From Desulfosudis oleivorans (GTDB lineage Bacteria > Desulfobacterota > Desulfobacteria > Desulfobacterales > SURF-7): a stretch of DNA of 64,000 nucleotides. Of the stretch, positions 18,797 through 38,892 are shown piece after piece. Position 1 is the stretch's first letter. Each line of letters begins with the position of its first letter. The position numbers and the translations under genes were made by a program. A model generated the notes under the pieces. The model was given only the letters and a program-made list of their open reading frames with translations. It was not told where the DNA came from and did no database searches. The DNA lies in contig DYJD01000009.1 in assembly GCA_020723325.1 (NCBI GenBank), forward strand, positions 162,776-226,775. The letters run 5' to 3'.

Positions 18797-19903
18797 CTAC
18801 ACCACAATGTTCAATAGGCCGTTGCCTGTATTGATGCGTTCCAGCAATGTTAGGCCCGTGGAAGCGCTGGAAACAGCCAGACGGCAATCCACATGCTCGG
18901 CCTTGAATCCATGGGCCGCAAGATTGGACTTCAATTCCGGAATGCCGGCTGCGATCAGATCCCGGACACTTGCATCCGCCGTCTCAAAAAAACCGTTTAC
19001 GGTTTTTTGGAAAATGGAAAAATCCGCTGCCAGTTCCCCTAGATTCGACAGCTCCAGCAGCAAAGCTACCCGCACCACCCCGGCCCCCCGTGCTTTTGCG
19101 CCCTCATCCCGATCCGCAAGCTGAATCAGCAATTGGCCCAAACGCCATTCGCCTTCCAGTGATATGGGAAAAGGGAAAAAAAACTTGCCGGTTTCTTCCA
19201 GGGCTTGCTTGTTGAACAGTTGCAGGTCTTCCAGTTGATCCACAAACACCCGCATGGAGCCGCCCGCATCTGATTTTTCGGCCGGCTCATGTTGAAGGCC
19301 CTCCAAAATCAGGGCTTTTAAATCATCGGCAATCATTTCCTTAACCCGGCTTTTGTCCGCTGGGGTGTCTGCCAGCATTTGCCGGCGCAATTTGTGCTCC
19401 CAGCTCAGACCGCCGTCCCGGATGATGCGCCCAAGTATCTCCCGGTCGGGTGTTGCGGACTTGAGGGCCAAAGTAGAGAGCAGCTTTTTCAGGACAGGGC
19501 CGTGAATGCCGCTGGGCTTGGCTTTGGTTCCACTGCTCTCCAAGGAGTTCAAAAGATCAAAAACCAAGTGATAGGCTTCCTGACGAAAGGGGATCGGAAT
19601 TGTTTTTAAGGGCACTACAGGCGGATTAGCGCCTTCCGCCATGATTTTCAACACTGTTTCCCTGCCGGTTGATTGCACTTTTACGGTTATGCTTTCATCG
19701 ATCTTCAGCGGCGTATGGGTTTTCACCGCGACTCTCTGGCCCTGGATCAGCAGAACCGCCTCCCGCGGGCCGGAGTCCCCCACTACTCTTGCCGTTATTA
19801 TCCGGCCGGGACGCAGTCCGGATAAAAGCTTCTGGTTATCAGCCTTGGACTTGACCACAAGATCAGATGAAGAAACCAGCAGTCGCGATATCTTTTGGGC
19901 CAT
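18797..19903 (-). CDS. FliK-like flagellar hook-length control protein
   Basis: 368 residues. N-terminal region SGLRPGRIITARVVGDSGPREA then QRVAVKTHTPLKIDESITVKV is a small beta domain seen at the N-terminus of divergent FliK proteins. The C-terminal 120 residues fit the Flg_hook domain: VRVALLLELSNLGELAADF, a helix pair (FETADASVRDLIAAGIPELK) and LAAHGFKAEHVDCRLAV. FliK switches export from rod/hook to filament substrates. Position at the end of the flagellar cluster supports it. The middle lacks the long Pro/Gln-rich ruler of classical FliK, so it may be a FliK paralogue. Confidence 0.72.
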   Translation of the reverse strand: MAQKISRLLVSSSDLVVKSKADNQKLLSGLRPGRIITARVVGDSGPREAVLLIQGQRVAVKTHTPLKIDESITVKVQSTGRETVLKIMAEGANPPVVPLKTIPIPFRQEAYHLVFDLLNSLESSGTKAKPSGIHGPVLKKLLSTLALKSATPDREILGRIIRDGGLSWEHKLRRQMLADTPADKSRVKEMIADDLKALILEGLQHEPAEKSDAGGSMRVFVDQLEDLQLFNKQALEETGKFFFPFPISLEGEWRLGQLLIQLADRDEGAKARGAGVVRVALLLELSNLGELAADFSIFQKTVNGFFETADASVRDLIAAGIPELKSNLAAHGFKAEHVDCRLAVSSASTGLTLLERINTGNGLLNIVV

Positions 19904-19923: not shown

Positions 19924-20400
19924 CTAGGTCATCGCCAACAACTTCTTTTTCAAATCAATGACCAAATCCACTTCTCCGCGGGACATGGTCAATTCCCGGG
20001 CAATGGCTTCCGAGTCAAAACCTTTTTCCAATAACCGGCCGATGGCCTCCTGTTGATCATAGACATGCACTTGATCTGCGCCCCAGGTCCCGGATTGCAG
20101 ATTCAAATCCGCCCGATTCAACAGCAGGTTCAAACTGATGATGCGGCTGTCCAGTTTTTCATTCAATTGATTGATGATTCGATTCTTTTCTTTTAATTGC
20201 TTTTCAAAATCCCGGGACGCTGTTTGCGCATCCTGGAACAATGGTTCGATCAGGCGAAAAACCTGTTCGGCCGCTCCGGCTGAAATCTCCCGCTGCAGGC
20301 TCATGCGGAGGCTGCGGATTAAATAAATCATGAACATGATTAAAAGCATATCAATCACGATCATGAGAATAGTAAGGAATTCGATGGATAGCCCCTTCAT
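19924..20400 (-). CDS. Flagellar-cluster membrane protein, DUF2802/DUF6115-like
   Basis: 158 residues: one N-terminal membrane helix (FLTILMIVIDMLLIMFMIYLI), a coiled coil at about 45-95 (FEKQLKEKNRIINQLNEKLD) and a C-terminal helix-turn-helix-like segment EAIGRLLEKGFDSEAIARE with GEVDLVIDLKKK. This architecture matches the small DUF2802/DUF6115 proteins that recur in flagellar gene clusters. Function unknown. It sits between two flagellar-cluster genes with gaps of about 20 bases. Confidence 0.72.
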   Translation of the reverse strand: MKGLSIEFLTILMIVIDMLLIMFMIYLIRSLRMSLQREISAGAAEQVFRLIEPLFQDAQTASRDFEKQLKEKNRIINQLNEKLDSRIISLNLLLNRADLNLQSGTWGADQVHVYDQQEAIGRLLEKGFDSEAIARELTMSRGEVDLVIDLKKKLLAMT

Positions 20401-20420: not shown

Positions 20421-20720
20421 TCAGGCAATGGTATCCAGCAAGCGTCCGGTTCCCTCCGGATCTTCTTCATTCAACGCCTGTTTTTCCTTTTCTTTTTGTT
20501 CCTGCTCACGTTCCTGCTTTTCATCACGCTTTTTCTCCTGATACGGCTTGATCTTGTCCGCATTATCAGATTCATTGACGACAGCGCGCTGCTCCATTTC
20601 CTTGTGGGCCTGCTGGGCCGGGGTCATCTGGCGCGGATCCAGCATTTGTTTTATTTGCTGGCTGTCCCGGGCCGCATCCCCCTGTTGAACCACGATGGTG
20701 ATATTTGAAATCGTCGACAC
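20421..20720 (-). CDS. Small charged flagellar-cluster protein, unknown
   Basis: 99 residues, not recognised. The first 30 residues are neutral (MSTISNITIVVQQGDAARDS), the rest is strongly charged and helical (EKKRDEKQEREQEQKEKEKQ), probably a coiled coil. GTG start at 20720 with GGAGG 8 bases upstream. It lies between the FliL-like repeat protein and the DUF2802-like protein on the same strand, so it is a probable flagellar accessory protein. No signal peptide or membrane segment. Confidence 0.68.
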   Translation of the reverse strand: MSTISNITIVVQQGDAARDSQQIKQMLDPRQMTPAQQAHKEMEQRAVVNESDNADKIKPYQEKKRDEKQEREQEQKEKEKQALNEEDPEGTGRLLDTIA

Positions 20721-20753: not shown

Positions 20754-23159
20754 TTAGACCGTTCTGAAATCATTCAGCTCCACCTTGCTGACTGCTTCAG
20801 CTTTCAAGGCCCGGTTCAAGGCCTCCTTGATCACCTTTTTCAGTTGCTCCGGATCGGTTTCACCTGCTTCTTTCTCAAAAAATTCCTTGCTGATGGCTGA
20901 ATAAACAATGGAGCGGAAAAACGCCTCCTGCCGGATGATTTCATTGGCAGACTCTGTTTTTTGCAGATCAATGATCACATCAGCGGTAATAAAGGCAATT
21001 TTTTCATTACCGGGTGGTGCAAAAACAACAAAACCCTTCAGCTCGATTTTAAAATCATGAGCCATTACCGGTGGTTTTTTCTTCTGGGCCGGGGGCGGTT
21101 TGGGTATGGATTTAACCGCAACTTCCGTCTGCATCCCGGTTTGCGAAGCGGTTTTCTTGCCGCGGAAATAATGATATCCGCCCGTTGACGCCAATATCAC
21201 CAGCAGGATCGAAGCAGCCAAGGCCATATACTTGGACCGATACCAGGGACGCCTTAAGGGTCGGAGCGCGGTCTCCTCTTTCTCAGCCAGAATGACCCGA
21301 TCCACTGGTTCCTGTGGCAGGGCGGCGGGCTCTTCAGGCTTGCTCTCTTCCGCGGCTCCAAGATCATCCTGCAACAACCGGTCGATTTCATCCTGGGAAA
21401 CCAGGTCTTTCTTCGGCCTTTCCTTGGCCTTTTGCACCGGCTGTACCGGCGCTTCTTCATCCACTTCCCGCAGCAACTGATCAATATCGTCCTGGGAAAT
21501 GATCTCTTCCTCGCCCGTCGACATTCCGCCGGCCGGGATCGATCCGCCTGGGCCATCTTCGCCCCCCAGCAACCGGTCAATGTCGTCCTGGGAAATGATC
21601 TCGGTTTCTTCCAATCCTTTTTTCAGAGCAACGGTTTCAGCAACATTATCTTCACCCCGTAATAGCCGATCAATGTCATCCTGGGAGATGATCTCGGTGG
21701 TGTCGCTTTCCGCTTTCGTGGGAAGAATTTCAGTCCCGCCTTCATCCTGCAATAGCCGCTCGATATCATCCTGGGAAATGATTTCGGTACTGTCTATTTC
21801 AGCTTTCAAGGCAACGGTTTTAGGACCGCTCTCATCCTGGAAAAGCCCATCGATATCATCCTGGGAAAAAATATCACTTGTATCTGCCCGGTCTTTCGGC
21901 CCCATGCTTTTATCTTCATCACCCTGATCCAGCATGAGCGAGTCGATTTCATCCTGGGAAATGAGTCCGCTTTCTCCAGCCGCTTTTGTCGGCGACTCCT
22001 TTAAGGGTTTTTTCTTGGCTGCGGCTTTTGCAAGCAGTTCATCCAGTTCGGCTTGGGTGATAAAATTGGAGCGCGCTTCTTCCTCTTCCACCGGGGCTGT
22101 TTCAGTCCCGCTCGGTTTTGCCTCCAATAAAAGCCGATTGATCTCGTCCTGTGTCAGGATCAAGCCGGCATCTTCCGTCGCCGAAGCCTGCTCTTCCAAT
22201 GTTCCGCTTTTGTGGTAGGACATCAACAATTGGTCGATATCAGCTTGAGTCACCAAAGAGGGGATGGGCTCTCCGGCTTGAGCTGTTTTGGGTATTTCGA
22301 TTTCAGTATTTTCCAAATTAATGCCGGCCAGCAACTGGTCGATGTCGGACTGGGTTACCATACCGCTATCCGCAGCCGGGGGCTCTTCAACCTTGGGCAG
22401 GGGCTCGGACGCACCACCACCGCCGAATAACTGGTCGATATCGGATTGGGATATCAGACCCGTGTCGGATTCGGCCACAGCCCCGCCGGATCCGCTCTCT
22501 TCCTCGGCTCCGGACAGCAAACGATCAATTTCAGACGGGGATACCACTCCGCTGTCCGCGGCCGGCGGCTCCTCAACCTTGGGCAAGGGCTCGGACGCAC
22601 CACCACCACCGAACAACTGGTCGATATCGGATTGGGATATCAGACCCGTATCGGATTCGGCCACAGCCCCGCCGGACCCGCTCTCTTCCTCGACTCCGGA
22701 CAGCAGGCGATCGATGTCGGATTGGGATACCACTCCGCTGTCCGCGGCTGGCGGCTCCTCAACCTTGAGCAGGGGCTCGGACACTTCACCGCCGCCGAAC
22801 AACTGGTCGATGTCGGACTGGGATATCAGGCCGGAATCCGACCCGGCTCCGGTCTCCTCCGCCGCGGCCGCAGCCCCGCCGGACCCGCTCTCTTCCTCGG
22901 CTCCGGGCGACCGTGAAATCAGCCGGATTTCATCAGAAATTTCCGCATCAAGGGTCTCCTCGATCTCCTCGGCTTTTTCCAGGGCAAGATCCAGCAGCCG
23001 CTCGATTTCATCCAGGCTGACCAGCTCTGCAGCAGGCCCTGCCCGGCGAACCGGCTCTTCCACGGCCACGGATTCTTCCGAAACCCCCCGCAACAGACGA
23101 TCAATATCATCCTGGGAGATCTGATCGCTTTCAGCATCTTGATGGAGGATATCGTCCAT
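20754..23159 (-). CDS. FliL-like protein with 18 FliM-type CheY-docking motifs
   Basis: 801 residues. Residues 13-600 are acidic and low-complexity and carry, by eye, 18 copies of a 10-residue motif, consensus (I/V)SQ(D/S)DIDRLL with variants such as VSPSEIDRLL, LTQDEINRLL and ITQAELDELL. This equals the FliM N-terminal peptide (E. coli FliM ILSQAEIDALL; FliM in this window ILSQEEVDSLL), which binds phosphorylated CheY. One membrane helix follows at about 645-665 (MALAASILLVILASTGGY), then a FliL-like domain (702-801: FKIELKGFVVFAPPG to KVELNDFRTV). Predicted topology puts the motif arm in the cytoplasm and the FliL domain in the periplasm. A canonical FliL is present separately. Residues 110-280 are three near-identical 62-residue blocks. 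Follows fliA by 16 bases. Confidence 0.85.
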   Translation of the reverse strand: MDDILHQDAESDQISQDDIDRLLRGVSEESVAVEEPVRRAGPAAELVSLDEIERLLDLALEKAEEIEETLDAEISDEIRLISRSPGAEEESGSGGAAAAAEETGAGSDSGLISQSDIDQLFGGGEVSEPLLKVEEPPAADSGVVSQSDIDRLLSGVEEESGSGGAVAESDTGLISQSDIDQLFGGGGASEPLPKVEEPPAADSGVVSPSEIDRLLSGAEEESGSGGAVAESDTGLISQSDIDQLFGGGGASEPLPKVEEPPAADSGMVTQSDIDQLLAGINLENTEIEIPKTAQAGEPIPSLVTQADIDQLLMSYHKSGTLEEQASATEDAGLILTQDEINRLLLEAKPSGTETAPVEEEEARSNFITQAELDELLAKAAAKKKPLKESPTKAAGESGLISQDEIDSLMLDQGDEDKSMGPKDRADTSDIFSQDDIDGLFQDESGPKTVALKAEIDSTEIISQDDIERLLQDEGGTEILPTKAESDTTEIISQDDIDRLLRGEDNVAETVALKKGLEETEIISQDDIDRLLGGEDGPGGSIPAGGMSTGEEEIISQDDIDQLLREVDEEAPVQPVQKAKERPKKDLVSQDEIDRLLQDDLGAAEESKPEEPAALPQEPVDRVILAEKEETALRPLRRPWYRSKYMALAASILLVILASTGGYHYFRGKKTASQTGMQTEVAVKSIPKPPPAQKKKPPVMAHDFKIELKGFVVFAPPGNEKIAFITADVIIDLQKTESANEIIRQEAFFRSIVYSAISKEFFEKEAGETDPEQLKKVIKEALNRALKAEAVSKVELNDFRTV
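22320..22832 (-). repeat. Tandem 186-base coding repeats inside the motif protein
   Basis: Two full and one partial direct repeat of 186 bases encode the block GLISQSDIDQLFGGGGASEP, LPKVEEPPAADSG, VVSPSEIDRLLSG and EEESGSGGAVAESDT. Each block holds two docking motifs. The DNA is nearly identical between copies, which indicates recent duplication and a site prone to copy-number change. Confidence 0.85.
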
Positions 23160-23175: not shown

Positions 23176-23958
23176 TTATTCGTAGAATGTCTTCAGCTTG
23201 TTTTTCAATTTGATCAGGGCCATGGTGTGGATCTGGCAGATCCGGGACTCGGTCAAGCTCAACACCTTGCCGATTTCATTCAAGGTGAGTTCATCATGAT
23301 AATATAGGGAAATGACCAGTTGTTCCTTTTCGGAAAGGCCGGTGATGGCCTTGGCCACCACCTGCTTCAATTCTTGCCTGGCAAAATTCCGGGAAGGATC
23401 ATCCAGGCTGCGAACTCCATCCTGAAACCGCTTCTGGGACATGGTCTCGTTATCCTGGTTGCGGATGAATTCATCCAGGCTGAGAATGGCCGTGCCGTGT
23501 ATGTCCGTGAGATGCCGATAGTATTGATCCAGATTGATCCCGAGTTCCCCGGCGATTTCGCGGTCCTCGGCCGGCCGTCCCTCCCGGGCCTCCACCGTTG
23601 CCACCGCTTTTTCAATTTCCCGAATTTTCTTGCGCATGGAGCGGGAATACCAGTCCATACTGCGCAGTTCGTCCAGGATGGCCCCGCGGATGCGGTATTC
23701 GGCATAGGTCTGCAGATTCACTTCCTTCTGCGGATCATACTTGTCCACCGCATCAATCAGTCCCATGCAACCGGCGCTGATCAGCTCATCCAACATCACA
23801 CTGGAGGGCAGCTTGGCCGCCATCTTGCCGGCAATGCGCTTGACCAGATAAGCGTATTTGACAATCATTGCCTCCCGGACCTGGGGATCAAGGGGCCCTG
23901 GATTTATATTTTCGCCGGATTGCTCGTATTGTAACACCATATATTCCCGTTTCGGCAT
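23176..23958 (-). CDS. fliA: Flagellar sigma factor FliA (sigma-28)
   Basis: 260 residues, FliA/WhiG class with regions 2, 3 and 4: DELISAGCMGLIDAVDKYDP (region 2), FQTYAEYRIRGAILDELR-like NLQTYAEYRIRGAI, region 3 GELGINLDQYYRHL, and region 4 LSEKEQLVISLYYHDELTLN with LTESRICQIH. It directs late flagellar and chemotaxis genes. The gene starts 5 bases after flhG; the exact start is uncertain (ATG at 23958 or 23940). No FlgM anti-sigma gene is in the window. Confidence 0.93.
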   Translation of the reverse strand: MPKREYMVLQYEQSGENINPGPLDPQVREAMIVKYAYLVKRIAGKMAAKLPSSVMLDELISAGCMGLIDAVDKYDPQKEVNLQTYAEYRIRGAILDELRSMDWYSRSMRKKIREIEKAVATVEAREGRPAEDREIAGELGINLDQYYRHLTDIHGTAILSLDEFIRNQDNETMSQKRFQDGVRSLDDPSRNFARQELKQVVAKAITGLSEKEQLVISLYYHDELTLNEIGKVLSLTESRICQIHTMALIKLKNKLKTFYE

Positions 23959-23963
23959 TGGGT

Positions 23964-24980
23964 CTATTGTGTGTCTCCCAGCATCTGGGAGGTGCGGAAA
24001 CCGATAAAGCGTTTTAAGAAAAATTTTATGTTGCCGTCCGACTCATGCCGCCGGGGCGACTCTAAAATGCCGGCAGCCAGTTTGATGAACTGTTTGCTGC
24101 ATTCGGCGCCGGGATAAAGGCTCATGACCGGTTTGCGGCGCAGCACGGCCTTTCTCATGAGCTCATCCCCTGGAATGAAACCGATATATTCCAGCAGGAC
24201 CCCGTTCAGGAAGCGGTCCGCCACCTGGCTCAAATTTTCATACACCGCCTTGGCCACGCTGTTGTCCTTGACCATATTCACGAGGATCTTGAAATGCTTG
24301 GTGCCGTGCTGGGTGAACATCACCTTGATCATGGCATAAGCATCGGTGATGGAAGTCGGTTCATCCGTCACCACAATGATGCATTCGTCGGCCGCCAAAT
24401 TAAAATACACCACATTGGCGGAAATACCCGCACCGGTATCGATGAGAAACACATCCAGCATGTCATCCAGGGCTTCGAACTCACTCAGAAGGTTCAGTTT
24501 CTGACCTTCTGAAAGATGGGTCAGTTCCGCAACCCCGGAACCGGCCGGAATAATGCGAATCCCCTCAGGACCCTCCACCATTACATCCGCAAGGGATTTT
24601 TCGCCGTCGATCACATGGCCCATGTGATAGGAAGGATTCAAGCCGAAAATGATATCGATATTGGCCAGCCCAAGATCCGCATCAAAGATCAGCACTTTTT
24701 TCCCAAGCCGGGCAAAGGCTACTGCCAAATTCCCCACGATATTGGTCTTGCCCACACCACCCTTGCCGCTGGTTACGGAAATCACCCGCGGGGCATGCTG
24801 AATCGAACGGGGCGCCGTGCTGCCGGAAATCATTCGCCGCCGCGCTTCCACGGCTTTTGTCTCCACAATTTTTCGTAATCCTTGTGCCTGATCCACGTTT
24901 CGTCTCCCTTGTGTGATCTGTTCACACCCTTGTTGATCATGATCCTCTACAGGGGTATCTTTGCTGCCGGAATCTGTCAC
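23964..24980 (-). CDS. flhG: Flagellar number regulator FlhG (MinD/ParA-like ATPase)
   Basis: 338 residues. Deviant Walker A SGKGGVGKT at 71-79, DADLGLANIDIIFGL Walker A' region, and DTGAGISANVVYF Walker B region mark the MinD/FlhG family. The C-terminal amphipathic segment could mediate membrane binding. FlhG limits flagella number by stimulating the FlhF GTPase. A long 60-residue polar N-terminal extension precedes the ATPase and may hold the FlhF-activating DQAxxLR-type motif (DQAQGLRKIV at about 30-39). GTG start with AGGGG just upstream; 7 bases after flhF. Confidence 0.92.
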   Translation of the reverse strand: MTDSGSKDTPVEDHDQQGCEQITQGRRNVDQAQGLRKIVETKAVEARRRMISGSTAPRSIQHAPRVISVTSGKGGVGKTNIVGNLAVAFARLGKKVLIFDADLGLANIDIIFGLNPSYHMGHVIDGEKSLADVMVEGPEGIRIIPAGSGVAELTHLSEGQKLNLLSEFEALDDMLDVFLIDTGAGISANVVYFNLAADECIIVVTDEPTSITDAYAMIKVMFTQHGTKHFKILVNMVKDNSVAKAVYENLSQVADRFLNGVLLEYIGFIPGDELMRKAVLRRKPVMSLYPGAECSKQFIKLAAGILESPRRHESDGNIKFFLKRFIGFRTSQMLGDTQ

Positions 24981-24987
24981 CGTCCCC

Positions 24988-26163
24988 TTACATCCGGTTG
25001 AAAATCAGCCGCGATATGGTCTGGCGGCTGGCGGGCAGGATGTCTTCCGGTACATTCTGCCCGTTGGTGATGAACGAAATCGGCAGGCGATAGTCCAACA
25101 ACTGATCAATAATGCCGCCGCGCTGATTGGTTTCATCAATCTTGGTAAAAATATAGGTCTGGGGCTTCAGCACCGCAAAACGTTCAACCGCGGCCTTCAT
25201 ATCCGCCCGCCGGGTGGTGGCGCTGATCACCAACTGACTGGATATTTTCGGTTCGCATTCCAAGAGACGCGCCAGCTCCGCCATGCGTTTGCGATCCAGA
25301 TGACTTTGACCGGCCGTATCCACCAGGACCACATCCTTGTTTTGCATTTTCCGGGCCGCAGCGCGGACATCCTGGCTGGAAAAGGCGGACATGCAGGGCA
25401 GGCCGATGATGGCGGCATAGGTCTTCAGTTGTTCGATGGCGCCGATGCGAAAGCTGTCAATGGACACCAAACCAACTTTTTGCTTGCGCTTCAAACTCAA
25501 ATCCGCCGCCAACTTGGCGATGGTGGTGGTCTTACCCACGCCGGTGGGTCCCACAAAACTGATGATTTTACGCCCTTCTTCCTCGGTTTTGGAAGCGCCG
25601 GAAGCAAACGGATCGGCCACGATGATGGTGCGGGCCACGGCGGCCAGCACTTGTTTGCGGATCTCGGCGGCGTTGAGATCGCCTTCATTCTCCACCCGTG
25701 CAAATTTATTGATAAAAAACTGGGCGCGCTCGCTGGAAAGACCGGTGCGCACCAAACCGGAATATAATTCCAGCAATTCCGGATATTGCTGCAGCACAGC
25801 CGGCCACCCGCCGGCATGATTCAACAGGAAAATCATATCCTTGATCCGCAACAACTCTTCCCGGATGGTGCCATGCTGGTGGCTGGCCTGAAAAAAACAA
25901 GACTCATCAGTCTTGAGCGCTTCCGTGGCGCCGCCCTTGTCCTTGTCCGGGATTTCTTTTGCGGTTGATACAGAGGACGTCTCGGTGAAAGATTTCTTTT
26001 CCTTGGGCGCGGCCATCACTTCGAAAAGAACCTGTTCCCCTGGATGCCGGCCTTGGCCGGGTATGCGCCGCGTGGAAAAAATGACGGCATCCGGCCCCAT
26101 CTCTTTCTTGATCCTGCCGATGGCCTCTTGGATGCTCTTGGTCTGATAGCGTTTAAGTTGCAT
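24988..26163 (-). CDS. flhF: Flagellar SRP-like GTPase FlhF
   Basis: 391 residues: basic N-terminal B region (LKRYQTKSIQEAIGRIKKEM), variable linker to about 95, N domain, and G domain with P-loop GPTGVGKTTT at 205-214, LVSIDSFRIGAIEQLKTY, LVDTAGQS and the TKIDE specificity motif. FlhF recruits early flagellar components to the cell pole, so the organism probably has polar flagella. The ATG overlaps the flhA 3' end by 11 bases. Confidence 0.94.
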   Translation of the reverse strand: MQLKRYQTKSIQEAIGRIKKEMGPDAVIFSTRRIPGQGRHPGEQVLFEVMAAPKEKKSFTETSSVSTAKEIPDKDKGGATEALKTDESCFFQASHQHGTIREELLRIKDMIFLLNHAGGWPAVLQQYPELLELYSGLVRTGLSSERAQFFINKFARVENEGDLNAAEIRKQVLAAVARTIIVADPFASGASKTEEEGRKIISFVGPTGVGKTTTIAKLAADLSLKRKQKVGLVSIDSFRIGAIEQLKTYAAIIGLPCMSAFSSQDVRAAARKMQNKDVVLVDTAGQSHLDRKRMAELARLLECEPKISSQLVISATTRRADMKAAVERFAVLKPQTYIFTKIDETNQRGGIIDQLLDYRLPISFITNGQNVPEDILPASRQTISRLIFNRM

Positions 26164-28252
26164 GCTTCAAGATTACCTTTCCCACGGATTGGATCCGGAT
26201 ATTCTGGGAAATCTCGGCATGGGACAAGACAAATACCGAGGCGGCGAAATGCTCTATGATTCTTCGCAAATGCCTGCGCAACAGGGGGGAACACAGGATG
26301 ATGGGCTGCACGCTGATATTCATGAATTTTTCCACTTCCTCCTTGATGGAGTTGATGATGGATTCAACCACCCGGGGTTCCAGGGACAGATACAGACCAT
26401 GTTCCGATTGTTGAATGCCCTTGGAAAGGGTCTCCTCCACAGCCGGATCCACGGTGATCACCTGCAGCACACCGCCTTCCTGCACATAGGGTTCAAGGAT
26501 GGATCGACCCAGTTTTTGCCGGACATATTCCGTGAGCAAGTCCCCATCCTTGCTCATGGGCGCGTAATCCGCAAGGGTTTCCACGATGGTCAGGAGATCC
26601 CGGATGGACACCCGCTCCCGCAACAAATTCTGAAGCACTTTCTGAACCGCCCCCAGGGATAGAAGATTGGGCACCAGTTCTTCCACTGCCTTGGGATTGG
26701 TCTTGGAAAGGTGCTCCAGCAAGTGCTGGGTTTCCTGCTTGCCCAGGAGATCGGCGGCATTGGTACGGATGATTTCAGTGATGTGGGTGGCGATGACCGT
26801 GGCATTGTCCACCACCGTATAGCCGCTGAATTTGGCGTCCTCTTCCCGGTCCGGGGGGATCCAGAGGGCCGGCAGCTTAAAAGCCGGCTCCACGGTGGGA
26901 ACGCCCTCGATCTTGCGGCTCACCCCCCCGGGATCCATGGCCAGCAGGTGGTTGGCCATAAGCTCGGCCCTGGCCATTTCCACACCTTTGATCAGCACAC
27001 GGTATTCGGACGGCTTGAGTTTCAGATTATCCCGGATGTGAATGGCCGGTACGATGATGCCCATTTCCGTGGCGAACTGCCGCCGGATGGCGCGGATGCG
27101 GCCGAGCAAGGTGCCGTCCTGATCCCGGTCCACCAAGGGGATCAGACCGTAACCCACTTCCAGTTCCATGGTGTCCAGGGTCAGCAGATGCTCCACTTCT
27201 TCCGGACCGGCGGCGGCCGCACCTTCCCCAGGCGGGGCAAGGGCTGCCGGCGCTTCCTTTTCCAGAAAGCCCTTGCGTTGCAGAAAATACACCCCGCCCC
27301 CCAGAATCAGAGCCAAGGTCATAAAAGGCAGGGCCGGCAGCCCCGGCACCAGCCCGAACAGAAAGACAATCAGCGAACCGATATAGATGGGCGTGACATT
27401 GGCGAAAATGTGCTTCCCGAATTCCTTGCCCATGCTCTGCTCGCTGGCGGCCCTGGAAACCAGGATACCGGCAGCGGTGGAAACGATCAGGGCCGGAATT
27501 TGCGCCACCAGACCATCGCCCACCGTGAGCAAGGTGTAATTCTGGGCCGCTTCCAACAGGGTCATATTCTGCTGCAGCACGCCGATGATGAACCCGGCGA
27601 TGATATTGACGATGGTGATGACGATGCCGGCAATGGCATCCCCCCGTACAAACTTGCTGGCCCCGTCCATGGCGCCGTGGAATTCCGCTTCGCTGGCAAC
27701 TTCCTTGCGGCGTTTGCGGGCCTCGTTCTCGTCGATGATGCCGGCATTCAAATCCGCATCAATGGCCATTTGCTTGCCGGGCATGCCGTCCAGGGTAAAG
27801 CGCGCCGCCACCTCGGCAATGCGTCCGGAGCCTTTGGTAATGACGATGAAATTGATGAGCACCAGGATCATGAAAATGATCACGCCGATGACATAATTGC
27901 CGCCCACCACGAAGCTGCCGAAGGATTTGATCACCGCCCCGGCCGCCAGATGGCCCTCATGGCCGTGGAGCAGGATCAGCCGCGTGGAAGCCACGTTCAA
28001 CGAGAGCCGGAACAGGGTCAGCACCAGCAGCAGGCTCGGGAAAATGGAGAACTCCAGGGGCGAGGTGGTATACATGGTGGTGACCAGAATGATGATGGAC
28101 AAGGTAATGTTCAAGGCCAACAAAAGATCCAGCAGAAAAGGCGGGATGGGCAGCAGCATGGCCATCAAGACGCCCATGACGGCGACAACCATGCCGATAT
28201 CTGAGGAATTCCTTAGTATGATGCTGATAAACCCGGTTCGTTCACCTGCCAT
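26153..28252 (-). CDS. flhA: Flagellar export gate protein FlhA
   Basis: About 699 residues. Eight N-terminal membrane helices (first GMVVAVMGVLMAMLLPIPPF), the FHIPEP signature region between helices (AEVAARFTLDGMPGKQMAID), and a large cytoplasmic domain binding export chaperones. The ATG at 28252 has AAGGAG 6 bases upstream; a GTG 48 bases further upstream would add a basic tail. Typical length for FlhA is about 690-700. It is the major transmembrane gate of the flagellar type III export apparatus. Confidence 0.95.
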   Translation of the reverse strand: MAGERTGFISIILRNSSDIGMVVAVMGVLMAMLLPIPPFLLDLLLALNITLSIIILVTTMYTTSPLEFSIFPSLLLVLTLFRLSLNVASTRLILLHGHEGHLAAGAVIKSFGSFVVGGNYVIGVIIFMILVLINFIVITKGSGRIAEVAARFTLDGMPGKQMAIDADLNAGIIDENEARKRRKEVASEAEFHGAMDGASKFVRGDAIAGIVITIVNIIAGFIIGVLQQNMTLLEAAQNYTLLTVGDGLVAQIPALIVSTAAGILVSRAASEQSMGKEFGKHIFANVTPIYIGSLIVFLFGLVPGLPALPFMTLALILGGGVYFLQRKGFLEKEAPAALAPPGEGAAAAGPEEVEHLLTLDTMELEVGYGLIPLVDRDQDGTLLGRIRAIRRQFATEMGIIVPAIHIRDNLKLKPSEYRVLIKGVEMARAELMANHLLAMDPGGVSRKIEGVPTVEPAFKLPALWIPPDREEDAKFSGYTVVDNATVIATHITEIIRTNAADLLGKQETQHLLEHLSKTNPKAVEELVPNLLSLGAVQKVLQNLLRERVSIRDLLTIVETLADYAPMSKDGDLLTEYVRQKLGRSILEPYVQEGGVLQVITVDPAVEETLSKGIQQSEHGLYLSLEPRVVESIINSIKEEVEKFMNISVQPIILCSPLLRRHLRRIIEHFAASVFVLSHAEISQNIRIQSVGKVILKHAT

Positions 28253-28362
28253 TCCGCCTCCTTGCTGCCTTCCCCTTTTCCGACGACTGTTTTTTGACAC
28301 GGCTGTTGAAACTATGACATGAATTGCCCATCAATTCCCTGGCCGGCTCCGGCAATGCTGAT

Positions 28363-32331: not shown

Positions 32332-33309
32332 TTACTCCATAAATAATTTTTCACTGACACGGAACGCCTGAAAACCACGCTGAACACCGGCATATCCCAT
32401 CAATTTGGGCACACCTTCCACCAATCCCACCAGACAATTTTCCGCATCCTGATCCAACTGGATCACATCCCCGGTTTTCATCTGGATCAATTTTTCACCG
32501 TTGATTTGAACCCGGCCCAGCATGACCTCAAAACGCACGGAGGAACTAAGGATGATCTCCTTCAATCGTTTTTGCCAAACATAGTCGATATCCAATATTT
32601 CCGCCTGGAATCCGGCTGCCAGCTTGCCGCGCAAAGGTTCCAGCATGGCATAGGGCAGACAGACGATCAGCGTTCCGGCGGATTGGTCAAGTTCGATTTC
32701 ATATTTGGTAACCACCACCAGATCCGTAGGCATGACAATGGCGGCGAACTGGGGGTTCACCTCCGAGCGCACCAACACGGTGGTTAAGGATTCCACCGGT
32801 GCCCAGGCGGTCTGCAAGTCTTTTAAACAAGCGGTAACGACTTTATTGATCATGGTCTCTTCAATGGCGGTGTATTCGCGGCCTTCGATCTTGGCCGGCG
32901 CAGAGCCCTTGCCGCCGAAAAAAGTGTCGATGAGATTGAAGACCAACTGGCTTTCCAAAACCAGCAGGGCGTGGCCCCGGAAGGGATCCATGCGGAAAAC
33001 GTGCAGGCTGGTGGGCACGGGCAGAGACCGGCCGAATTCCGAAAATTTCATGGTATCCAATGCCTCGGCGCTGATATCCACGGTGGTATGCAGCAGGTTG
33101 GAAAGACTGGTGCGCACCTCCCGGGCAAAACGTTCATTGATGACTTCAAAGGTGGGCATGCGGCCGCGGATGACGCGGTCCTGGCCGCCGAAGTCATAGC
33201 GGCGCACTTCATCTCCTTCCGGCGGCTTGTCTGTTTCTGTTTCCACCTTGCCGGCGGTAAGACCACTCAATAAACTGTCGACTTCTTCCTGGGATAGTAT
33301 TTCGCTCAT
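32332..33309 (-). CDS. fliM: Flagellar switch protein FliM
   Basis: 325 residues. N-terminal CheY-P docking peptide EILSQEEVDSLLSG at residues 3-16, a middle CheC-like domain (YDFGGQDRVIRGRMPTFEVI start; GGKGSAPAKIEGREYT), and the C-terminal SpoA domain (VMLGRVQINGEKLIQMKTGD). Standard length. It carries one docking motif, which is the reference for the 18-copy array in the FliL-like protein encoded 9 kb downstream in the same transcription unit. Confidence 0.95.
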   Translation of the reverse strand: MSEILSQEEVDSLLSGLTAGKVETETDKPPEGDEVRRYDFGGQDRVIRGRMPTFEVINERFAREVRTSLSNLLHTTVDISAEALDTMKFSEFGRSLPVPTSLHVFRMDPFRGHALLVLESQLVFNLIDTFFGGKGSAPAKIEGREYTAIEETMINKVVTACLKDLQTAWAPVESLTTVLVRSEVNPQFAAIVMPTDLVVVTKYEIELDQSAGTLIVCLPYAMLEPLRGKLAAGFQAEILDIDYVWQKRLKEIILSSSVRFEVMLGRVQINGEKLIQMKTGDVIQLDQDAENCLVGLVEGVPKLMGYAGVQRGFQAFRVSEKLFME

Positions 33310-33318
33310 GGCTCTTTT

Positions 33319-33891
33319 CTATTGGATGATGAATTCAGTGAAAAACAAATTGCGGATCTTGCCTTTGGTTAGAAGTGTATTGATCTGCATGATCAATTCG
33401 TTCCGCAAAGCGATCTTGCCTTCCATGTTTTGGATTTCCTTCACGGTCTTGCCGGCCAGCAGGGCTGAGACCGTTTCCCGCAATAACGGCAGGCGGGCCT
33501 GAATTTCTTCCGGCCCTGTGCCGGCGGCCATTTCCAGCTCAAACTTCACCCTCAACAACCGCTGCCCTTCCCCTTCACCGAGATTCACGGCAAAGGGCTC
33601 CAGGAACAAAATGCCCGCGTATTCCGGGCTTTGTTGCTGCTCGGCCTTGGCGGGTGAAGGCGCTGCAACCGGTTCAGGAGGTTTTTCCGTGGATTTTTTA
33701 TAGAGCATCCGCCAACCCAAGAAGCCGCCGCCTGCTGAAATCAATACCACCGCCAGAGCGATCAAGCCCCATTTTAAGAACTTTTTCCGCGCCGGTGGCG
33801 CCGGGGTTGATTCAACACCGGTTTCCGGTTCCGGTTTTGCTTCCGGCTTTTCTTCCGGCTTTGCTTCTGGTTTGCTCGCATCCGTACTCAT
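33319..33891 (-). CDS. fliL: Flagellar basal-body protein FliL
   Basis: 190 residues: a cytoplasmic tail rich in PEAKPE repeats, one membrane helix (WGLIALAVVLISAGGGFLGW), and a periplasmic FliL domain (FLEPFAVNLGEGEGQRLLRV, LLAGKTVKEIQNMEGKIALR, FFTEFIIQ). FliL rings surround stator units and stabilise them. The second ATG (33891) is favoured: AAGGA at 6 bases versus 3 for ATG 33894. Confidence 0.93.
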   Translation of the reverse strand: MSTDASKPEAKPEEKPEAKPEPETGVESTPAPPARKKFLKWGLIALAVVLISAGGGFLGWRMLYKKSTEKPPEPVAAPSPAKAEQQQSPEYAGILFLEPFAVNLGEGEGQRLLRVKFELEMAAGTGPEEIQARLPLLRETVSALLAGKTVKEIQNMEGKIALRNELIMQINTLLTKGKIRNLFFTEFIIQ

Positions 33892-33919
33892 CATGCTTCC
33901 TTTATATAGCCTTGCTGCT

Positions 33920-34645
33920 TCAGCGGGAATCGCGTTTTTTCAAGATGAATTCAACCCGCCGATTTTTCGCCATGCTTTCCGCATCAAGGCCGGTAAAACG
34001 CGGCAGCTTATCCCCAAAACCGCCAGGGGCGATCTGACCAGGATCGAGACCGGTATGTTTCACAAGATGATCATGCACATTCAAGGCCCGTGCCACGGAA
34101 AGCTCCCAATTGGACGGGAATTGGGGACTTTGGATGGGATGGCTGTCGGTATGGCCGAGCACGATGATATCATTGGCAACTTTTTTCAGCAGACTTCCCA
34201 TGGCCTGGATAACTTCCCGTCGATCGGCCCGGACATCGGCGCTGCCGGAATCAAAAAGATTTTCCGCTTGCAGGGTGATCACCACCCCCCGCTGGTCTTC
34301 GCGCACATCCACCAATCCGGCGAGCAGCTCCCTTTGTGTCTGTTCCTCCGGCAAGACCTGTTGGTCCGGCCGGCTTCGCAGCATCAACAGCAGGGTTTCC
34401 GCATTCTCGATCCATTGGGTGAGTTCCCTTGAATCCAGGGTATCATCCTTGTCCTTATGGACAAATTCAAGGGGGCCGGCGGAAAGGGCCAATTCCTTCA
34501 GCACTTTTTTCACATGCTGGTCATCCAGGGATTTCATGGTGAGCAGCATGACAAAAAAAGTCAGCAGCAGCATGATCAGGTCGGTGAAGGTCACCATCCA
34601 CAAGCTGGAATTGTTGCTGCCTTGTTTTTCGGTTTTTCTGCCCAT
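33920..34645 (-). CDS. motB: Flagellar stator protein MotB
   Basis: 241 residues: one membrane helix with the ion-binding Asp (WMVTFTDLIMLLLTFFVMLL), plug/linker, and OmpA-like peptidoglycan-binding domain (ADRREVIQAMGSLLKKVAND, IIVLGHTDSHPI, SVARALNVHDHL, NRRVEFILKK). Start at 34645 as any longer frame overlaps the upstream gene. It pairs with MotA encoded two genes upstream; the intervening gene encodes a second MotB-like protein. Confidence 0.92.
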   Translation of the reverse strand: MGRKTEKQGSNNSSLWMVTFTDLIMLLLTFFVMLLTMKSLDDQHVKKVLKELALSAGPLEFVHKDKDDTLDSRELTQWIENAETLLLMLRSRPDQQVLPEEQTQRELLAGLVDVREDQRGVVITLQAENLFDSGSADVRADRREVIQAMGSLLKKVANDIIVLGHTDSHPIQSPQFPSNWELSVARALNVHDHLVKHTGLDPGQIAPGGFGDKLPRFTGLDAESMAKNRRVEFILKKRDSR

Positions 34646-34673
34646 GATTAGTAAAGCCTCGCCTATAAAACCA

Positions 34674-35441
34674 TTATTCCAATGTTCTGAAGAAAAATCT
34701 CTTAAAAGTGAAGCCGCTTTGGGGTTTTGCGCTAATCCCCTGATGAACCACCAGCAATTCAATTCTGCGGTTCATGGCCCGGGTTTCTTCCGTATCATCA
34801 GCATAGGCCGGCCGGTTGGAACCCCAACCGCAAGCAGTCAGGCGTTCGGGTGGCAATTTTCCCTCGACAATAAAATGCCTTAGAATGTTCATGGCTTGCA
34901 GGGCGGTCAATTCCCGGCTGCTCATGCCCTGTTCAGCCTCCGTGGTTTGACCGCTTGCATGCGCGCTGATTTCAATGGGCTGGTTGTTTTCCAGCAACAC
35001 CATACACAGCTTGTCCAATATATTTTTACCGGAAGAACTAAGAGCCGGTCCGGCCGGCTCAAAAAGCTCATGGCAAGGTATTTGCACCAGTGTGCCCCTG
35101 GGATTTTTCCGGATGGTAATTTTTTGAGCCCATTCCTCGCCGGCTGCAAATACTTTTGAAAGATCCATTGTCCCGGATTCGGTTTGGATCTTCATACCCG
35201 GCAATACTTCGCCGGGTTCCCGGATGACCGAGTATCCGCCGGTATCACCGCTGAAACTGGCCAGCAAGGAGCCGATGGCGGCCGTCACCTTTTTTTCATC
35301 CACAACGGCAATGGCATTCAGCAAAATAAAAAAAGCCAATAGAATGACAAACAGCGAGATACCCAGGGTCTGAAGGACAAAAGCGCTCCTATCTTCTGTG
35401 TGGACCGTCTTCCGTCTTTCCCCGGATGCCTTGCTTCCCAT
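34674..35441 (-). CDS. MotB-like protein lacking the ion-binding Asp
   Basis: 255 residues: N-terminal membrane helix (TLGISLFVILLAFFILLNAI), long linker, and OmpA/MotB-like domain (SSSGKNILDKLCMVLLENNQ, PIEISAHASGQT, GWGSNRPAYADD, NRRIELLVVHQ). Aligning LLAFF here to MTAMMAFF of MotB places Ser where MotB has the proton/sodium-binding Asp; the neighbouring motB keeps Asp. AAGGAG precedes the ATG by 6 bases. Order motA, this gene, motB. It may form heterodimers with MotB in the stator or be a structural partner; this is inference. Confidence 0.85.
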   Translation of the reverse strand: MGSKASGERRKTVHTEDRSAFVLQTLGISLFVILLAFFILLNAIAVVDEKKVTAAIGSLLASFSGDTGGYSVIREPGEVLPGMKIQTESGTMDLSKVFAAGEEWAQKITIRKNPRGTLVQIPCHELFEPAGPALSSSGKNILDKLCMVLLENNQPIEISAHASGQTTEAEQGMSSRELTALQAMNILRHFIVEGKLPPERLTACGWGSNRPAYADDTEETRAMNRRIELLVVHQGISAKPQSGFTFKRFFFRTLE

Positions 35442-35468: not shown

Positions 35469-36233
35469 CTATTCGTATCTGCTTTCCCGCTCCTTGGGCG
35501 CCATGAAAACCAGCAGTTTCTGTTCCAATACCCGGGGATTGTCGCCCCTGGTCATGCCCACCACGCCTTCAATGATCAATTCCTTTTTCAGGGTCTCTTC
35601 TTTGCTGCGGGTGCGCAGCTTGCCGGCCATGGGCATGCAGATCAAATTGGACATGATGGCACCGTAAAATGTAGTCAGTAAAGCCACGGACATGGCCGGC
35701 CCGATGGCACTGGGATTGTCCATGGATTGCAGCATCTGCACCAATCCGATCAGGGTTCCGATCATGCCCAGGGCCGGTGCAAAAGACCCCATGGTGGTAA
35801 AAATCTCGGCACTCAACTGATGGCGCTCTTTTAAAAAATCAATTTCCGTGTCCATGATTTCCTTGATGGCGGCCGGCTCCAAACCGTCCACGGACAATTG
35901 AATGCCCTTTCGCAGAAATTCGTCTTCTATGGCGCCGGTGTCTTCATCCAGGGCCAGAATGCCTTCCCGCCTGGCTTTGCTGGCAAAGCCGACAAATTGG
36001 ATAACGATATCATTCAAAGGTGTGGGTTTGGACTGAAAAACGTTTTTTACAGCCCGGGCCGCCGCAATCATATCCTTGATTGGATAGTTGATCATGGTGG
36101 CACCCAGGGTGCCCCCCAACACAATCATCAAGGATGGTATATCAATAAACAGGGCCAGCCCCCCGCCCATGACAATGGCCAGGGTCACCAAACCAAAGGC
36201 CGAAGCAATTCCTAGTAAGGTCGCAATATCCAT
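35469..36233 (-). CDS. motA: Flagellar stator protein MotA/PomA
   Basis: 254 residues, four membrane helices: GIASAFGLVTLAIVMGGGLA, PSLMIVLGGTLGATMINYPI, GSFAPALGMIGTLIGLVQML and GPAMSVALLTTFYGAIMSNL; the cytoplasmic loop carries the charged residues contacting FliG. The 254-residue size and sequence are closer to PomA-like proteins than to E. coli MotA. First gene of the long flagellar unit, 88 bases downstream of a sigma-54 promoter. Confidence 0.94.
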   Translation of the reverse strand: MDIATLLGIASAFGLVTLAIVMGGGLALFIDIPSLMIVLGGTLGATMINYPIKDMIAAARAVKNVFQSKPTPLNDIVIQFVGFASKARREGILALDEDTGAIEDEFLRKGIQLSVDGLEPAAIKEIMDTEIDFLKERHQLSAEIFTTMGSFAPALGMIGTLIGLVQMLQSMDNPSAIGPAMSVALLTTFYGAIMSNLICMPMAGKLRTRSKEETLKKELIIEGVVGMTRGDNPRVLEQKLLVFMAPKERESRYE

Positions 36234-37607: not shown

Positions 37608-37639
37608 GATTTTGGGAAAAAAGGAGCTTGCAAAGCAGC

Positions 37640-38884
37640 ATGAAACAATATCAAAGCATGTTTGGATGGCTACGAGCAGCGGGTATATTTTGCGTTTTCA
37701 GCCTGGGCCTGCTTTGCATCATCGGCACCGGTGGGGATGAAATCGAAGATACCCCCCAGACAACCGCCTCCCAATCCGTCAACACCCTCCCTACCGCCAC
37801 CATCAATACGCCGGCAGACCCCACCGTTTTCACCGAAGGGGCCTTGATCACTTTTTCCGGCTCAGGCACGGACACGGAAGACGGCACTTTGTCCGGCGCT
37901 GCTTTGGTGTGGAGTTCCAGCATCGACGGCCGCATCGGCATCGGCGCCAATGTCCCCAATGTCTCCCTTTCCACCGGCTCCCATGTCATTACCTTGACGG
38001 CCACGGACAGTAACGGCGGCGCAGCCAGCGACACCGCCACCATCACCCTCAATCCCCGGACCAACACCATCCCCACTGCCGCCATCACCGCTCCGGCCAC
38101 GGGCAGCACTTTCGGCCAGGGCCAATTCATCAATTTAGCCGGCACGGGCACAGACACCGAAGACGGCCAACTCCAGGGCAATGCCCTGGTCTGGTCCTCC
38201 CAGATCGACGGACAGATCGGCACCGGCAATTCCATCACCGTCAACAACCTGTCCGCCGGCACCCATACAATCCGTCTGACAGTCACTGACAGCGCCCACA
38301 CCAGCGGCACTGCTTCCATTTCCATCACCGTGGGCAACACCCCCCCCACCGCCGTTATCAACTATCCAGCCGACGGCGCCACCATCAATGAAGGTTATTC
38401 CATCACCTTTTCCGGTACCGGCACAGACCCGGAAGACGGCAGTTTGAGCGGCAGCGCCCTGGTATGGCGCTCCAACAAGGACGGCCAGATCGGCATCGGC
38501 AACTCGCCCCTTGTATCCTTTCTGTCCAGCGGCCCCCATGTCATCACCCTGAGCGTCACCGACAGCGACGGCGCCACCGGTTCGGACACCATTGCCTTGA
38601 CCGTGGGCAACACCCTGCCGACGGCTTCCATTAAGAATCCTGCCGGCGGGTCCACCTTCACCGCAAGCGAGCTCATCGTTTTCAACGGCACCGGCACCGA
38701 TGCAGAAGACGGTAATCTTTACGGCGGCAGCCTGGTGTGGACTTCCAGCCGCGACGGTCTGATCGGGACCGGCACGAATGTCAGCGTCAGCGGTCTTTCC
38801 GTGGGTGCCCACCTCATCACCTTGACGGTCACGGACCGCAACGGTGCGGTGGACAGCGAAGCCATCACCATCACCATTCAATAA
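37640..38884 (+). CDS. Exported protein with four Ig-like repeats
   Basis: 414 residues. A hydrophobic N-terminal segment (GIFCVFSLGLLCIIGTGG) is a signal peptide or, through LLCIIG, a poor lipobox. Then four repeats of about 91 residues, each with PTAxIxxPA, GTGTDTEDG, LVWSS, DGQIGTG and ITLTVTDS elements: cadherin/PKD-like Ig folds with acidic DTEDG calcium-type loops. No C-terminal anchor is visible. Lies 32 bases after the FlgP-like gene and 8 bases before the larger paralogue, so probably in the same sigma-54 transcript. Adhesin or sheath-like surface role is inference. Start uncertain by a few codons. Confidence 0.8.
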   Translation: MKQYQSMFGWLRAAGIFCVFSLGLLCIIGTGGDEIEDTPQTTASQSVNTLPTATINTPADPTVFTEGALITFSGSGTDTEDGTLSGAALVWSSSIDGRIGIGANVPNVSLSTGSHVITLTATDSNGGAASDTATITLNPRTNTIPTAAITAPATGSTFGQGQFINLAGTGTDTEDGQLQGNALVWSSQIDGQIGTGNSITVNNLSAGTHTIRLTVTDSAHTSGTASISITVGNTPPTAVINYPADGATINEGYSITFSGTGTDPEDGSLSGSALVWRSNKDGQIGIGNSPLVSFLSSGPHVITLSVTDSDGATGSDTIALTVGNTLPTASIKNPAGGSTFTASELIVFNGTGTDAEDGNLYGGSLVWTSSRDGLIGTGTNVSVSGLSVGAHLITLTVTDRNGAVDSEAITITIQ

Positions 38885-38892
38885 GGCGGATT

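What the first reader, a model, noticed from the sequence alone, without database searches (positions are those of the whole stretch)
20754..23159. FliL-like protein with an 18-copy array of the FliM CheY-P docking motif
Sequence: 18 copies by eye of a motif such as ISQDDIDRLL spread over the first 600 of 801 residues, then one membrane helix, then a FliL-like domain. Established: the E. coli FliM N-terminal peptide ILSQAEIDALL binds phosphorylated CheY. Inference: a membrane-anchored, motor-associated cytoplasmic arm that concentrates CheY-P near the switch or acts as a sink that tunes response. I know of no described protein of this design.
Basis: partly seen in the sequence, partly recalled or inferred. 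Interest (0 to 1): 0.93.

Follow-up and report, generated by a model that had tools for sequence, protein, structure and literature searches.

The report
FliL-type protein with CheY-docking array
A gene in a flagellum operon encodes a membrane protein of the FliL type (FliL steadies the motor's stators) whose long tail repeats 18 times a motif like the one by which the motor switch protein docks the chemotaxis signal CheY; it likely gathers CheY beside the motor, and the same design recurs at the same gene position in dozens of related bacteria.

The parts
20754..23159 (-). array-FliL2 gene, 801 aa
   Evidence: the fliA frame ends 16 bases upstream of the ATG
21372..23123 (-). array of 18 FliM-N-like motifs, residues 13-596 (conserved Ser/Thr at residues 15, 48, 113, 145, 175, 207, 237, 269, 304, 336, 368, 401, 432, 462, 492, 523, 555, 588), joined by acidic Gly/Ala/Ser/Pro-rich linkers
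   Evidence: a helix is predicted at 17 of 18 motifs, linkers mostly pLDDT below 50
21174..21230 (-). membrane helix, residues 644-662
   Evidence: hydropathy; helix 640-665 in the model
20757..21053 (-). FliL domain, residues 703-801
23176..23958 (-). fliA (sigma-28 type), immediately upstream
   Evidence: sigma-70 regions 2, 3, 4; the name fliA is by recall and position
23964..24980 (-). flhG (MinD-like ATPase), rival ligand of the motif
   Evidence: best PDB matches FleN and FlhG
24988..26163 (-). flhF
   Evidence: SRP54-type GTPase E 1.3e-42; name by recall and position
26153..28300 (-). flhA
   Evidence: FHIPEP E 8.6e-279
19924..20400 (-). DUF6115/DUF2802-type gene downstream
   Evidence: order kept in relatives
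18797..19903 (-). fliK
   Evidence: PF02120 E 2.6e-8
32332..33309 (-). fliM; its own single motif at 33268-33300 (ILSQEEVDSLL)
33319..33894 (-). canonical fliL (a second, separate FliL gene)
   Evidence: PF03748 E 1.8e-20
35469..36233 (-). motA-type stator gene in the same cluster
   Evidence: PF01618 E 7.6e-32

Best explanation
This is a second FliL-type membrane protein, encoded in a flagellar operon, whose long N-terminal tail carries 18 FliM-like motifs and which likely works as a multivalent arm that captures CheY next to the motor switch. Shown: motifs, membrane helix, flagellar operon, conservation in relatives; predicted: FliL fold, helices at the motifs. Inferred: the tail lies in the cytoplasm (FliL topology; more positive charge before the helix than after it, by eye); the FliL domain sits at the stators, where FliL forms ten-membered rings (PMC9195833, passages); each motif would fold onto the alpha4-beta5-alpha5 face of CheY and prefer CheY-P as FliM does; the disordered arm would reach the C-ring. 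If ten copies surrounded one stator unit there would be about 180 docking sites, so CheY-P would be held and rebound beside FliM. I commit to a local reservoir that raises effective CheY-P at the switch and also buffers free CheY-P. The confidence is for the CheY-capturing arm at the motor; given that, I put reservoir against sink at about 3 to 2.
For: The FliM profile hits only this gene and FliM in the window. Anchoring on all 604 SQ dipeptides in the pre-helix parts of 85 proteins, without further selection, gives I 81%, D 78%, L 82% at the positions of FliM I11, D12 and L14, while the A13 position is free; L6, Q8, I11, D12 and L14 are in the published FliM-CheY contact list (PMC3774744 Table 3, passage). 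14 of 18 window copies keep all five. The genome has one clear canonical CheY (L182:1501-1875; 64% identity to a locus-type CheY, next best 37%) that matches enteric CheY at E 3e-44; of the nine CheY residues in that list A90, K92, Y106, V108, K119 and K122 are identical, I95 and A99 are Val, K91 is Gln (read by eye). Core pN/pS between copies 0.29 against 0.88-0.95 in flanks. A cheY (61-100% identical to each other's reference) lies between fliA and an arrayless FliL-type gene in 9 of 12 fetched loci; the gap there is at most 255 bases in 17 array loci and 221 in 26 more. Three of four CheZ found by Pfam in array genomes score on the FliM profile at the tail. FliL fold.
Against: No binding or localisation data. 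FlhG binds the same FliM/FliY region and is co-encoded. The FliM of array genomes reads EVDSLL where arrays read DIDxLL. The cheY-adjacent FliL-type genes do not group with the array tails in the tree, so calling them counterparts rests on position. Arrayless FliL2 exist in near relatives (G023, G051). Arrays occur on non-FliL proteins. Copies were chosen by pattern, so the pN/pS contrast is biased. The CheX-FliN, FliN and two of the six CheZ examples were found through the motif itself.
Confidence: 0.6

Rival explanations
1. FlhG-docking arm: the motifs bind the MinD-like ATPase FlhG rather than CheY, tethering or sequestering it at the membrane to set flagellar number or place.
For: FlhG binds FliM through the FliM N-terminus, and FliY residues 1-36 are necessary and sufficient in a Geobacillus system (PMC11236974, PMC12327844, passages). 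flhG is the gene before fliA in the array loci that reach that far. Of three GtFlhG residues needed for FliY binding (K177, R207, F215; the passage also prints 277 once), two have identical equivalents in the window's FlhG (K219, F257; R207 is N249; hand count, with an offset of 8 between chain and paper numbering that I inferred).
Against: The same motif ends CheZ proteins and sits in a CheX-CheX-FliN protein, which act on CheY. cheY adjoins arrayless FliL-type genes. R207 is not kept. flhG is in the locus whether or not the neighbour has an array.
Confidence: 0.17
2. CheY-P sink (shares the CheY-docking core): the arm soaks up CheY-P away from FliM and damps or shortens responses.
For: Up to 18 sites per chain would compete with one per FliM. 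CheZ above cut-off is found in 4 of 59 genomes searched and not in this one, so other ways to lower CheY-P could be useful.
Against: CheX phosphatases are common (9 matches in this genome; 38 of 59 genomes), one beside the canonical cheY. All 4 genomes with CheZ above cut-off also have array genes, so the array does not replace CheZ. A sink need not be tied to a FliL domain.
Confidence: 0.24
3. CheY-gated stator control (shares the CheY-docking core): CheY-P occupancy of the arm changes the FliL2 ring and so stator engagement or speed rather than direction.
For: FliL rings surround and stabilise stators (PMC9195833, passages); arm and FliL domain are one chain; motA and motB-type genes are in the cluster.
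Against: A flexible 600-residue arm transmits force poorly; varying copy number (4-18) fits capacity better than a conformational switch.
Confidence: 0.1
4. Repeat expansion without function.
For: Some units are near copies of one another (sequence), so duplication is recent in part.
Against: The motif is held while linkers diverge, within the gene and across 85 proteins.
Confidence: 0.04

Closest known systems
FliL (PF03748; PDB 7sgn, 6ahq, 6ahp)
   Same: one membrane helix followed by a FliL/SPFH-like domain; flagellar operon; best fold matches
   Different: canonical FliL is a separate gene here (33319-33894); this paralogue sits after fliA and has about 640 residues before the helix, with 18 docking-type motifs
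FliM N-terminal CheY-docking peptide (LSQxEIDxLL)
   Same: motif recognised by a FliM-derived profile; CheY-contact residues kept
   Different: FliM has one copy at its start; no FliM middle or SPOA domain was found in this protein
CheZ C-terminal CheY-docking tail
   Same: two CheZ of array genomes end in ISQENIDALLxEYGID
   Different: one or two copies at the C-terminus of a soluble phosphatase
FliY / CheX-FliN switch phosphatases
   Same: FliM-like motif beside CheY-acting domains (L180)
   Different: one motif, no membrane anchor seen
Caulobacter Cle proteins (PMC5677366)
   Same: tuning of the motor through the FliM docking site
   Different: there the competitor is the receiver; here the docking site itself is multiplied

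Membership tests
FliL | FliL/SPFH-like fold of the C-terminal domain | tested here: met
FliL | match to PF03748 | tested here: inconclusive
   this protein 17.3 bits, cut-off 24.6; 3 of 10 relatives scanned (P0006, P0061, P0067) above it; 8 of 18 members match at E up to 0.05; the family profile finds FliL directly before FliM at E 3.5e-19 in G172
FliL | single membrane helix before the domain | tested here: met
FliL | location at stators | not testable with these tools
   needs microscopy or cryo-ET
canonical FliL orthologue | groups with the FliL next to fliM | tested here: not met
   19 of 21 array tails plus three arrayless FliL2 form one group (99/98), canonical FliL another (94/88) that also holds one arrayless row, L157; two zinc-ribbon tails stand apart; short domain, many weak forks
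FliM | FliM middle and SPOA domains | tested here: not met
   no PF02154 or PF01052 match at E up to 10
CheY-binding FliM-N motif | sequence match including CheY-contact residues | tested here: met
   with PMC3774744 Table 3
CheY-binding FliM-N motif | a canonical CheY with the partner residues in the genome | tested here: met
   L182:1501-1875, six of nine residues identical, two conservative, one changed
CheY-binding FliM-N motif | physical binding of CheY-P | not testable with these tools
   no complex prediction was on hand
FlhG-binding FliM/FliY N-terminus | partner FlhG keeps the binding residues | tested here: inconclusive
   two of three residues kept (by hand)

The most novel reading that the evidence does not exclude
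Bacteria of this phylum have turned the single CheY-docking peptide of FliM into a reusable multivalent module: membrane-tethered arrays of up to 18 sites, mostly on a stator-ring FliL paralogue but also on other membrane proteins, that create a local high-capacity CheY-P phase at the flagellar motor and set its gain.
Probability: 0.4. Interest if true: 0.9.

Novelty: new variant of a known kind. Interest (0 to 1): 0.82.

Why it matters
Textbook chemotaxis treats CheY-P as diffusing to one docking peptide per FliM (recalled). A conserved, likely motor-associated protein with up to 18 further docking sites per chain would make capture, rebinding and buffering at the motor a genetically set property, testable by changing the number of motifs. 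It also joins two things usually kept apart, the stator-stabilising FliL ring and the CheY signal. Two cultured strains with the design are named among the loci (Desulfospira joergensenii DSM 10085, Desulfobacter vibrioformis DSM 8776). In the library searched I found no listed paper that describes it; that library lacks most subscription journals.

Tried and rejected

Rows dropped or limits before counts: one search scored only the 7986 candidates that share most words. P0074, P0077, P0079, P0088 were left out of the 85-protein statistics (other architectures); zinc-ribbon P0042 and P0084 were kept. In some searches, 29 of 30 FliM loci were read; L068 was not. In the FliL tree 5 identical rows of 72 were removed. 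The 29 named loci were found with patterns taken from the array (88 stretches matched, 29 confirmed), so that all carry arrays is by construction; their gene order is not. The 12 loci were picked from the list mainly by distance from fliM, not by presence of cheY, and that list was not followed to its end.

Full report
WHAT IS THERE. The reading frame 20754-23159 on the minus strand encodes 801 residues. Residues 13-596 hold 18 copies of a motif such as ISQDDIDRLL, 30-35 residues apart with one gap of 65. A membrane helix (644-662) and a C-terminal domain follow. The linkers are rich in E, G, A, S and P with net charge -0.17 per residue. The full-length model (mean pLDDT 57.2) shows a helix at 17 of 18 motifs and mostly pLDDT below 50 between them.

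NOT CHANCE. Pattern counts of 16 (strict) and 18 (loose) compare with shuffle means of 0.003 and 0.22, at most 1 and 3 in 2000. To avoid a pattern of my own choice I built a profile from 29 FliM N-termini of this and related genomes (read). In 127,936 six-frame positions of the window it gives 17 hits above the 95th percentile of shuffle maxima: 16 in this gene and one in FliM itself. Two of the 18 copies, at residues 48 and 304, fall just under, and only 6 exceed the best of all shuffles. In the 7.2 Mb genome a degenerate DNA pattern has 16 exact matches, 12 of them here, and its reversed control 1; the four others do not score on the profile. Between copies the nine-codon core has pN/pS 0.29, the flanks 0.88-0.95; copies were chosen by pattern, so this contrast is biased in favour of the motif.

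A FAMILY, IN ONE PLACE. 88 further proteins match at E up to 1e-3. In 85 proteins (this one included, four of other architecture left out) the part before the helix carries 4 to 18 motifs, median 7. In the 29 named loci fliA lies directly upstream in 26, and the other three begin at a contig end; DUF6115 follows in 25, and the other four end inside the array. In the relatives sample fliA is the next gene upstream in the window and 16 further loci; fliK was recognised in most but not all of the loci that reach it. Of 59 genomes of that sample (own included), array genes are in 19: 18 of the 19 matched (the match in G051 is an arrayless FliL2) plus G058, seen at a contig end. They range from two motifs in G013 upward; in G005 the contig begins inside the array, with one whole motif left. 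FliM is in 30 of 59. Of 21 genomes whose FliM begins with an EV-type motif, 18 have the array, G023 and G051 have an arrayless FliL2, and G049 had no match and its fliM lies at a contig edge. Of the nine other FliM genomes none matched; eight read EI-type and one was not read. G005 has the array with no FliM match.

WHO BINDS IT. First, without selection on the motif, all 604 SQ dipeptides in the pre-helix parts of 85 proteins are followed by I (81%), D (78%) and L (82%) at the places of FliM I11, D12 and L14 and by any residue at A13. These, with L6 and Q8, are in the contact list of the FliM-CheY complex (PMC3774744, Table 3 as shown in the passage). 14 of 18 window copies keep all five. In Caulobacter, changing the Ile-Asp pair of FliM left cells swimming but unable to reverse, and Cle proteins no longer localised (PMC5677366, passages). 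This genome has one clear canonical CheY, at L182:1501-1875 beside a CheX-like gene (64% identity, E 1.2e-49, next match E 4.8e-22). It matches enteric CheY at E 3e-44; of the nine CheY residues in the contact list, A90, K92, Y106, V108, K119 and K122 are identical, I95 and A99 are Val, and K91 is Gln (by eye).

Second, elsewhere in the phylum the post-fliA place holds a FliL-type gene without array, and in 9 of 12 fetched loci (L154-L156, L159-L164) a cheY lies between fliA and it; L158 and L165 have none and L157 is not at fliA. These nine receivers are 61-100% identical to that of L155; five were checked by Pfam. In G023 a receiver-TPR protein takes that place. Array loci have no cheY there: the gap is at most 255 bases in 17 loci and 221 in 26. 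Against this, the cheY-adjacent genes do not group with the array tails in the tree, so the comparison is by position.

Third, other proteins with the motif are CheY-acting or switch proteins. Of the four CheZ found by Pfam in array genomes, three score at the tail, two of them ending in ISQENIDALL, and one (L177) does not. Two further CheZ with two motifs each (L172, L179), a CheX-CheX-FliN protein (L180) and a FliN with two motifs (L181) were found through the motif profile, so they illustrate rather than test. Fourth, the six phylum genomes with motif-repeat genes outside the FliL locus that I read (G094, G202, G314, G189, G250, G294) all have FliM, against 180 of 297 overall; this is weak.

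THE SERIOUS RIVAL is FlhG. It binds the FliM N-terminus, and in Geobacillus the first 36 residues of FliY, nucleotide-independently (PMC11236974, PMC12327844, PMC12826062, passages). It is encoded two genes upstream. Of three interface residues two are kept (by hand). I keep this at 0.17 because CheZ and CheX proteins have no known business with FlhG (recalled), and because flhG is in the locus whether or not the array is.

HOW IT WOULD WORK. FliL forms ten-membered rings, shown around stators in two species (PMC9195833, passages). If FliL2 does likewise, about 180 docking sites per stator unit would hang into the cytoplasm near the C-ring (inference, arithmetic only). Such an arm would hold and rebind CheY-P beside FliM (reservoir), or keep it from FliM (sink), or report CheY-P to the stator ring. 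Varying copy number fits capacity tuning. I favour the reservoir; the direction of the effect is open.

AGAINST THE READING. Arrayless FliL2 in near relatives suggest that a motor can do without the array. Arrays or motif repeats on DUF3999 (L166, in G094, whose own FliL2 lacks the array), zinc-ribbon (P0042, P0084), TPR (P0079) and Ig-domain proteins (P0088, L167-L170), and on a protein without a recognised domain (L173), show that FliL is not the only carrier. Nothing here measures binding or location.

NOVELTY. Each part is known; the combination, its scale and its conservation were not found in five searches of the paper library, seen as listings. Hence a new variant of a known kind.

Noticed in passing
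L166:1923-5006 (-) and L158:2902-3732 (+), genome G094: A DUF3999 protein carries ten motifs (pattern), by position after its membrane helix, in a genome whose FliL2 has no array: the array seems to sit on another membrane protein there.
   Followed up: partly
L175:1364-2038 (-), L176:1355-2032 (-), L172:1039-2556 (+), L179:438-1970 (+): CheZ C-terminal tails that read like the FliM motif (ISQENIDALL in L175 and L176); L172 and L179 have two such motifs each.
   Followed up: partly
L180:2-1507 (-): CheX-CheX-motif-FliN_C protein, a FliY-like switch phosphatase of unusual order.
   Followed up: partly
L181:3000-3662 (+): FliN-type protein with two FliM-like motifs at its N-terminus.
   Followed up: partly
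L096:7088-8275 (-): Receiver-TPR protein in the cheY place between fliA and an arrayless FliL2.
   Followed up: partly
L182:948-1875 (+): CheX-like gene and the canonical cheY of this genome side by side, after PilZ-like frames (by eye) and before a sigma-54 activator type gene (by eye).
   Followed up: partly
P0042, P0084: Zinc-ribbon + array + membrane helix + tail; genomic context not seen.
   Followed up: no
L167-L170, P0088: Proteins with DQxDIDxLL-type motifs; those scanned (L167, P0088) also have Ig/cadherin-like domains. No flagellar genes were labelled beside L167-L170.
   Followed up: partly
L173:1795-2718 (-): A 307-residue protein with about five motifs (by eye) and no Pfam domain above cut-off.
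   Followed up: no
window 20421-20720 (-): Small GTG frame of 99 aa between the array gene and the DUF6115 gene; a small frame sits in the same place in some relatives (L158, L165, L096).
   Followed up: no
L107:1996 (-): A FliM-like motif (TLSPENVDTLL) inside a 1025-aa frame at a CheA-type locus of this genome.
   Followed up: no
relatives sample: Two FliM types in one order, EVDSLL and EIDALL; in this sample the array was seen only with the first.
   Followed up: partly
window 33920-34762 and 34674-35441 (-): Two neighbouring OmpA-domain frames (the first with a MotB plug) after one motA.
   Followed up: no
window 37628-41994 (+): Two large repeat proteins beside the flagellar cluster; the longer one has PKD/Ig-type domains.
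   Followed up: no
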